Of a DNA stretch of 64,000 bases, positions 15,801 through 16,189 are shown piece after piece (the first letter of the stretch is position 1; every line of letters begins with the position of its first letter). This DNA is from Nicotiana tabacum (Eukaryota; Streptophyta; Magnoliopsida; Solanales; Solanaceae). Location: contig NC_134085.1 of assembly GCF_000715075.1 (NCBI RefSeq), positions 156,020,178 to 156,084,177 of the forward strand. Reading direction: 5' to 3'. Position numbers and translations under genes: made by a program. The notes beneath the pieces were generated by a model. It saw only the letters and a program-made list of their open reading frames with translations, searched no databases and was not told where the DNA came from.

Positions 15801-16183
15801 TGAATCACCTGGTTCTTGAAAGCACCTTGTTTTCGTTTCTTTTGCTTTATTGGTGTGAAAGAAGGGTTCTCGTTGAGTTTGTGAGTCATCACATTTGGTG
15901 GTATCCCTGTCATATCAGCGTGGGACCAAGCAAAGCAGTCTAAGTTAGCTTTTAAAAATTCGATTATCATACCTCGCATGTTCGTGTCTAAATTAGCCCC
16001 GATATAAACCTTCCGTTCAGGCTGTTGATCAAATAACGTCGCTGCATCAAGCTCTTCAATCGTCGTTTTGATGCTTTCATTCTCTTCAGGTTCTTGAATT
16101 GTGTCAGGCCTTGAGTCCAAATCTGTTTTCTCTTGTTCAGTTGAAGTTTGATCTTTTTTACTTTCAACTGTTTCCTGTAATTG
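12821..16183 (-). CDS. pol: Tat element pol: RT, RNase H, second RNase H, integrase
   Basis: The frame is open for 1120 codons after the UAG at 16184-16186. Reverse transcriptase spans about residues 125-305 with catalytic YIDD ('MEVYIDDMLVKTQ'). A first RNase H follows that has lost its first Asp ('LLIYLAVSEVAVSVVLVRE'). A second, intact archaeal-type RNase H begins 'LYTDGSSNVKGAGLGIVL', with Glu in 'NNEAEYEAVIAGL' and Asp in 'IIKSDSQLV'. Integrase has an HHCC finger ('HEGHCGNHAGG' ... 'CDKCQRYG') and D, D, E residues in 'MDIVGPLP', 'CDNGPQFIG' and 'NGQAESTNK'. The dual RNase H is diagnostic for Tat/Ogre. The frame is fully intact. Expression as a gag-pro-pol fusion by readthrough is inferred from the stop context. 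Confidence 0.9.
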   Translation of the reverse strand, partial: QLQETVESKKDQTSTEQEKTDLDSRPDTIQEPEENESIKTTIEELDAATLFDQQPERKVYIGANLDTNMRGMIIEFLKANLDCFAWSHADMTGIPPNVMTHKLNENPSFTPIKQKKRKQGAFKNQVIQDEVQKLLKIGSIREVKYPTWLANTVVVPKKNGKWRICVDYTDLNKACPKDSLPLPHIDQLIDVTAGHELLGFLDAYSGYNQIKMDPGDEEKTSFITDRGTYCYKVMPFGLKNAGATYQRLVTKMFQEHLGKTMEVYIDDMLVKTQQSHDHISHLSITFEILRKFNMKLNPEKCAFGGASGKFLGFLVSNRGIEVNPSQIKAIEEIPDILTNKKEVQRLTGRIAALGRFISKSSERCFKFFSALKKQDHFEWNEDCQQALRNLKTYLSKPPLLAKPKVGEKLLIYLAVSEVAVSVVLVREDQGKQSPIYYVSKSLLEAETRYPQLEKLALALVMASRKLRPYFQCHLIVVVTAFPLRNILHKHELSGRLAKWAIELSEYEVIYQPRTAIKSQVLADFVADFSQGMHLEAEKELLVFNGVNPGTWVLYTDGSSNVKGAGLGIVLVPPAGETIRQAIKCHSITNNEAEYEAVIAGLELARELGITQIIIKSDSQLVVNQMLGTYTARESRMQEYLAKVRELIKQFQTWKVVQVPRDENVEADALANLASAADVANNTDASVIHLFHSVLEPDKNEVNFNHLTWDWRNEIVAFLQHGTVPNDKRKAYALRKRGAQYCLYQGNLYRKMFGGPLARCLGPSQTEYVMREVHEGHCGNHAGGRSLVRTLIRTGYYWPKMEEEATIFVSKCDKCQRYGNNMHRPVELLHTILAPWPFMKWGMDIVGPLPQAKGQVKFLLVLTDYFTKWVEAGAFKQVREKEVKDFIWRNIICRFGVPKEIVCDNGPQFIGAQVTEFFQSWQIKRITSTPYHPVGNGQAESTNKVIINNLKKRLHDSKGNWLEVLPGVLWAYRTTTKTGTGETPFSMVYGTEALIPVEIGEPSTRYDQATEESNNEEMRVSLDLLEGRREAALIRMAAQKQVIERYYNRKARLRFFKIEDFVLKKVFQSTKAVNSGKLSPTWEGPYKVRGIAGKGAYQLETMDGKVLPSHWNVVHLKRYYF

Positions 16184-16189
16184 CTATTT
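16178..16189 (-). promoter_or_regulatory. In-frame UAG with CAA UUA readthrough context between gag-pro and pol
   Basis: The minus strand reads AAA TAG CAA TTA CAG, with TAG at 16184-16186. gag-pro and pol are in the same frame on either side. UAG followed by CAR YYA is the type I plant readthrough context known from tobamoviruses, and the same kind of signal was reported between pol and env-like in the SIRE1 retroelement. The match here is exact. Programmed readthrough is an inference. Confidence 0.75.

What the first reader, a model, noticed from the sequence alone, without database searches (positions are those of the whole stretch)
16178..16189. Tobamovirus-type UAG CAA UUA readthrough context between gag-pro and pol of a Tat retrotransposon
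gag-protease (18397-16187) and a fully open 1120-codon pol (16183-12821) share one frame and are separated only by TAG, followed by CAA TTA. This is an exact fit to UAG CAR YYA, the type I context known from tobamoviruses and reported for the SIRE1 pol/env-like junction. The stop sits at the structural/enzymatic boundary where retroelements need to control product ratio, and pol is intact with no start codon of its own nearby. Readthrough as the gag:pol control in this lineage would be unusual; most plant Ty3 elements use one ORF, and Ogre uses splicing.
Basis: partly seen in the sequence, partly recalled or inferred. Interest (0 to 1): 0.88.

Follow-up and report, generated by a model that had tools for sequence, protein, structure and literature searches.

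The report
Leaky stop in tobacco retrotransposon
A family of tobacco jumping genes carries, between its structural and its enzyme genes, a conserved stop signal in the same leaky wording that tobacco mosaic virus uses, so ribosomes probably read through it now and then to make a small measured amount of enzyme.

Summary
The junction is real: on the minus strand the gag-pro frame ends AAA TAG CAA TTA (16189-16178) and pol (1120 codons) continues in frame. One detail is wrong: this copy's gag-pro is not open; it has a second in-frame stop (TAA, 18037-18035).

The stop is not private: of the 100 nearest copies listed (612 places in all), 98 have TAG CAATTA. In other family types, found without regard to the nine bases, UAG plus CARYYA recurs while the encoded residue changes: CAACCA (Pro), CAATCA (Ser), CAACTA/CAGCTA/CAATTA (Leu). 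A coding block behind the stop and before the first Met looks selected. No excess RNA structure follows.

Against: 10 of 41 junctions around one family type have no stop at that site; decayed copies often depart from the motif; no readthrough was measured.

Best explanation: type I (tobamovirus-type) readthrough sets the Gag-Pro : Gag-Pro-Pol ratio in these Retand (Tat) Ty3 elements. Gag/pol readthrough is known in MuLV and fission-yeast elements, so this is a new variant of a known kind.

The parts
18466..19075 (-). 5' LTR of the element (element lies on the minus strand)
   Evidence: 98.5% identical to the other LTR over 611 columns (610 compared), 8 transitions, 0 transversions, K2P 0.0133
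8170..8780 (-). 3' LTR
16187..18034 (-). gag-pro open part, 616 codons (Retrotrans_gag; protease motif IDPGSS read by eye)
   Evidence: open_frame_aa column, hand count
16184..16186 (-). UAG stop codon between gag-pro and pol, recurring across family types
16178..16183 (-). CAA UUA, the CARYYA type I readthrough hexamer
   Evidence: motif definition PMC5382211 (passages)
12821..16183 (-). pol: RT, RNase H, additional (archaeal-type) RNase H, integrase; 1120 codons
8986..9756 (+). [quoted passage not shown] weak Transposase_28 match (E 0.021, 15.5 bits, below cut-off 26.2)
10138..11788 (+). two further antisense ORFs (10138-10941, 10982-11788), no Pfam family above cut-off

Best explanation
This is a Retand-type (Tat) Ty3 retrotransposon. 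Its family makes Gag-protease from one frame that ends at a leaky UAG. The six bases after it (CAA UUA; after UAG in sister family types also CAA CUA, CAA CCA, CAA UCA, CAG CUA, CAG UUA) are the tobamovirus type I signal; a minority of ribosomes decode the UAG with a near-cognate tRNA and go on in frame to make Gag-Pro-Pol, which fixes the ratio of structural to enzymatic protein. Shown: the sequence signal, its recurrence in many copies and several family types, the common frame, and signs of selection on codons after the stop. Inferred: that readthrough happens, its rate, and its use for product ratio. This individual copy is decayed (second stop in gag).
For: (1) 98 of the 100 listed nearest copies (of 612 places) have TAG CAATTA; the pattern left those nine bases free. 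(2) Of 120 listed gag-pro relatives, 19 end at exactly the window's residue and 16 more within 45 residues of the same block (some with unrelated tails); 5 reach the pol start; 80 do not reach the junction or could not be placed, among them two (P0145, P0186) that enter pol further on after skipping sequence. Of the five, P0022, P0193 and P0223 lack the residues around the stop, P0205 and P0206 run on without one. (3) Two divergent copies found by protein similarity in a 200 kb sample, the only two keeping a junction of this type, read TAG CAACCA (L014) and TAG CAATCA (L002). (4) L014-type: 12 of 14 TAG+CARYYA. P0179-type: of 30 junctions that keep the site 25 have TAG, 26 CARYYA, 21 both. P0212-type: of 20, 12 TAG, 16 CARYYA, 10 both; 8 of the other 10 are one base from the motif. 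(5) In five motif-bearing representatives A-TAG-CAA..A is fixed while YY varies and the residue there is Leu, Pro or Ser; flanks agree at 35%. (6) A 40-codon block after the stop and before the first Met: dN 0.20-0.25 with dS saturated between window and three P0179-type copies. (7) In plants the TMV and BNYVV type I contexts gave 32% and 11% readthrough (PMC2754532, passages).
Against: 10 of 41 P0179-type junctions have no stop at that site (L039, L043, L049, L060, L061, L064, L067, L068, L069, L071), so it is dispensable in some lineages. One close copy has TAT and an open frame of 1743 aa; a P0212-type copy (L081), matching protein P0205, has GAG and CAATTT. Half of the 20 P0212-type copies and 9 of the 30 P0179-type copies lack the full TAG+CARYYA. 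The five representatives were chosen among motif-bearing copies. The 100 listed are the nearest copies, hence closely related. Family types are related by descent, so they are not independent draws. In L041 the first Met after the stop is codon 18, in L072 codon 49. No transcript or protein data. No stimulating RNA structure (z -0.51).
Confidence: 0.86

Rival explanations
1. Private nonsense mutation: a once single gag-pol frame in which one codon became TAG, the hexamer matching by chance.
For: This copy is decayed elsewhere (TAA in gag); most Retand clusters in eudicots have one frame (83%, PMC11963269, passage).
Against: 98 of 100 listed copies and several divergent family types carry the stop with CARYYA; chance of the hexamer is about 0.24% per stop.
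Confidence: 0.02
2. Splicing as in Ogre: an intron containing the stop is removed from part of the transcripts.
For: Three database gene models that reach the pol start lack the stop region (P0022, P0193, P0223); Ogre frames are separated by 274 bp on average, an intron in pea and Medicago (PMC6317226, passage).
Against: The two frames are separated by one codon and stay in phase in the representatives of all five family types; codons after the stop look selected; splicing gives no reason to conserve CARYYA. No RNA data here.
Confidence: 0.05
3. Pol is translated separately by reinitiation, internal initiation or a shorter mRNA; the stop simply ends gag-pro.
For: Two-frame gag and pol occur in the remaining 41% of Retand clusters (PMC11963269, passage).
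Against: First in-frame Met is codon 69 (window) or 71 (L047, L035), behind a conserved coding block, though codon 18 in L041 and 49 in L072; a plain terminator gives no reason to keep UAG plus CARYYA or the common frame.
Confidence: 0.05
4. The hexamer is conserved as protein (Gln-Leu) and not as a readthrough signal.
For: Within the 100 listed window-type copies the hexamer is CAATTA throughout.
Against: Between family types the second codon is Leu, Pro or Ser and in most copies YYA, and neighbouring residues differ.
Confidence: 0.04

Closest known systems
Tobamovirus / benyvirus type I readthrough (UAG CARYYA), e.g. TMV replicase, BNYVV (PMC5382211, PMC2754532; passages read)
   Same: Same stop codon and hexamer consensus; described as acting without a structure in TMV (PMC2194720, passage); tobacco as a TMV host is recalled
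   Different: There it extends the replicase of an RNA virus; here it would join Gag-Pro to Pol of an endogenous Ty3 element
Moloney MuLV gag-UAG-pol (PMC2194720, passages read)
   Same: In-frame UAG between gag and pol
   Different: MuLV needs a purine-rich spacer and pseudoknot; here protease lies before the stop and the hexamer is the candidate signal
Fission-yeast Ty3-type Tj1, Tcry1, Tosmo1-3 (PMC10085805, passages read)
   Same: Retrotransposons with an in-frame stop and conserved stop context; the stop is reported essential for Tj1 transposition
   Different: TGA with CT context, stop between Gag and a Pol that includes PR; fungal
SIRE1 (Sirevirus, copia) env-like gene (seen only as cited in PMC2194720 and PMC3414828)
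   Same: Plant retroelement reported to use stop-codon suppression
   Different: Copia lineage; it serves the env-like protein, not gag/pol
Ogre (Tat) partial splicing (PMC6317226, passages read)
   Same: Tat lineage, Gag-Prot frame separated from RT-RH-INT frame
   Different: Ogre has a region of 274 bp on average, an intron in two species; here one codon

Membership tests
Ty3 Tat/Retand lineage | additional RNase H between RNase H and integrase | tested here: met
   RVT_3 at 556-673 between RT_RNaseH_2 (379-476) and rve (836-932) of pol; shared by Ogre and Retand (PMC6317226)
Ty3 Tat/Retand lineage | pol-3'LTR region of 2,933-6,566 bp with antisense ORFs | tested here: met
   about 4.0 kb between 12821 and 8780 with plus-strand ORFs; range from PMC11963269
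Ty3 Tat/Retand lineage | TRP28 (Transposase_28) in an antisense ORF | tested here: inconclusive
   E 0.021, 15.5 bits against cut-off 26.2
Type I stop-codon readthrough | UAG stop | tested here: met
Type I stop-codon readthrough | CARYYA immediately 3' | tested here: met
Type I stop-codon readthrough | in-frame coding extension under selection | tested here: met
   short pairwise estimates
Type I stop-codon readthrough | measured extended product | not testable with these tools
   needs a reporter or proteomics
Type III / MuLV-type readthrough | 3' RNA structure | tested here: not met
   fold of 123 nt from the stop: z -0.51, 56 of 200 shuffles at least as stable; pseudoknots not modelled
Ogre-type splicing | non-coding intron between the two frames | tested here: not met
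   frames separated by one codon in phase; RNA not available

The most novel reading that the evidence does not exclude
The leaky UAG CARYYA is an old, lineage-wide control of pol output in two-frame Retand elements of Solanaceae and perhaps other angiosperms, so that plant genomes hold thousands of chromosomal copies of the tobamovirus-type signal, and sister lineages have switched between readthrough and a single fused frame.
Probability: 0.4. Interest if true: 0.85.

Novelty: new variant of a known kind. Interest (0 to 1): 0.74.

Why it matters
How plant Ty3 elements with separate frames make pol is unsettled in what I could read: the passages seen count one or two frames and name splicing for Ogre. 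A conserved tobamovirus-type signal gives a specific, cheap test. It would show the same recoding signal used by an RNA virus and by an endogenous element of a plant host, and would explain gene models that leave out sequence at this spot.

Tried and rejected
Private nonsense mutation was my first expectation; speak against it. Structure-dependent readthrough: no signal. Relatives in viral contigs: none. Relatives in genome contigs: 7 loci, none informative; only L022 (a Streptomyces clavifer contig) was looked at, and it has no stop in its frame. Paper searches for a plant Ty3 gag/pol readthrough with this signal showed none in their listings; Gao et al. 2003, the obvious earlier survey, is not held and may contain related cases. 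TSD: flanks of the LTRs did not show a matching 5-mer by eye; not pursued.

Full report
Observation. On the minus strand the gag-pro frame ends in AAA TAG CAA TTA at 16189-16178 and pol continues in the same frame for 1120 codons to 12821. TAG is followed by an exact CARYYA hexamer. In the window 4 of 1754 TAGs (both strands) have that hexamer.

The element. Two LTRs (18466-19075 and 8170-8780) are 98.5% identical, with 8 transitions and no transversion. Pol carries RT, RNase H, an additional RNase H and integrase, in the order given for Retand and Ogre in PMC6317226 (passages); [quoted passage not shown] The Transposase_28 match is too weak to count.

Host. The window lies in a 4.0 Gb assembly. 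Seven contig lengths (C1, C2, C4, C8, C15, C22, C23) equal those listed with Nicotiana tabacum proteins, so the host is taken as N. tabacum; C20, which holds a copy of the P0205 junction, differs slightly in length from the contig listed with P0205.

Is the stop private? No. A protein search with the gag-pro piece gave 211 relatives, 120 listed: 19 end at exactly the window's residue, 16 within 45 residues of the same block (some with unrelated tails), 5 reach the pol start, and 80 do not reach the junction or could not be placed; two of these (P0145, P0186) enter pol further on after skipping sequence. Of the five, P0022, P0193 and P0223 lack the residues around the stop; P0205 and P0206 run on without a stop. 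Proteins longer than 1078 aa could not be candidates in that search; the pol search (616-1960 aa) named one Nicotiana protein among its best 120, P0022 of 979 aa. A pattern with the nine bases of stop and hexamer left free found 612 places (reversed control: 2). The 100 listed, 53 without and 47 with one mismatch, read TAG CAATTA 98 times, TAA CAATTA once and TAT CAATTA once. The TAT copy has an open frame of 1743 aa; by hand count at least 18 distinct elements in the list have a gag-pro frame of 749-751 aa.

Other family types. In 200 kb taken beside the window without regard to the motif, four stretches kept Tat protease sequence: L014 and L002 keep a junction of this type and read TAG CAACCA and TAG CAATCA; L011 has a long region between protease and pol (Ogre-like is my label); L006 stops short of the junction. 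L002 has a further stop two codons later. L014-type: all 14 places found, 11 TAG CAACCA, 1 TAG CAATTA, 1 TAG AAACCA, 1 TTG CAAGCA. P0179-type: 41 distinct junctions out of 216 matches, 10 (12 loci, two pairs being the same element) and 31. Thirty keep the site: 25 TAG, 2 TAA, 2 TAT, 1 TTG; 26 CARYYA; 21 both. Ten have no stop at the site, several with scattered stops nearby; one (L066) has a deletion there. Nine more stretches (L072-L080) were picked on purpose and are not counted again. P0212-type: 20 of 67 matches were fetched, from those that match to the protein's last residue (more than 20 do): 12 TAG, 4 TAA, 2 TAT, 1 TGG, 1 GAG; 16 CARYYA; 10 both; 8 of the other 10 are one base from the motif, two are two bases away. 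By eye the five types fall into about three deeper groups: window with P0179-type, L014-type with L002-type, and P0212-type.

What is conserved. In one motif-bearing representative of each of five types, aligned without gaps from the stop, fixed positions are the A before the stop, TAG, CAA and the last A of the hexamer, plus isolated positions at -21, -6, +16 and +37. The two Y positions vary; mean agreement is 0.87 in the nine bases and 0.35 in the flanks. Because the representatives were picked for having the motif, the tallies above are the fair evidence and this is an illustration. The residue encoded by the YYA codon is Leu, Pro or Ser, which points to the nucleotides rather than the peptide.

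Is the region after the stop translated? Its first Met is codon 69 in the window, 71 in L047 and L035, but 49 in L072 and 18 in L041. A 40-codon block from DSRP, which ends before that Met in window, L047 and L035, shows saturated dS and dN of 0.20, 0.21 and 0.25 between the window and L047, L041 and L035; two within-type pairs give dN/dS 0.22 and 0.45. These are short, single-pair estimates. They fit translation from upstream across the stop.

Mechanism. CAR YYA after UAG is described as the sole signal for readthrough in TMV and others (PMC2194720, PMC5382211; passages). In plants TMV gave 32% and BNYVV 11%, UAA or UGA less, and a C to G change at the first base abolished it (PMC2754532, passages). 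No excess RNA structure follows the stop. I therefore infer leaky termination that sets the Gag-Pro to Gag-Pro-Pol ratio. Not shown: that it happens, and how often.

Against. Lineages without the stop exist in several copies, so the control is not indispensable, or those elements use proteins of others. TAA and sense codons occur at the site. Three gene models that reach the pol start lack the stop region, which I read as an annotation artefact but which could in principle reflect splicing.

Novelty. Gag/pol stop readthrough is known in MuLV (PMC2194720, passages) and proposed or shown in fission-yeast elements (PMC10085805, passages); type I signals are known in plant viruses; SIRE1 is reported to use suppression for its env-like gene (as cited in PMC2194720). 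I found no paper naming a type I signal at gag/pol of a plant Ty3 element in the listings, but the library lacks most subscription papers and Gao et al. 2003 was not held.

Noticed in passing
L039, L043, L049, L060, L061, L064, L067, L068, L069, L071: Sister lineages with no stop at the gag-pro/pol site; seven (L039, L043, L049, L060, L061, L067, L071) share nearly the same junction wording, so a stop-free form has multiplied.
   Followed up: partly
window 18035-18037: In-frame TAA in gag of this copy, while other elements have an open gag-pro frame of about 750 aa.
   Followed up: partly
window 21733-25620, minus strand: Fully open 1295-aa copia-type polyprotein (RVT_2, rve, Pol_BBD).
   Followed up: no
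L022 (BMWJ01000029.1, Streptomyces clavifer assembly): A 4.7 kb contig coding for a Tat-like pol (39% identity) with no stop in its frame; probably contamination of the bacterial assembly.
   Followed up: no
P0022, P0193, P0223: Nicotiana sylvestris gene models fuse gag-pro to pol while lacking the residues around the stop, most likely invented introns.
   Followed up: partly
window 8170-8780 and 18466-19075: All 8 substitutions between the LTRs are transitions.
   Followed up: no
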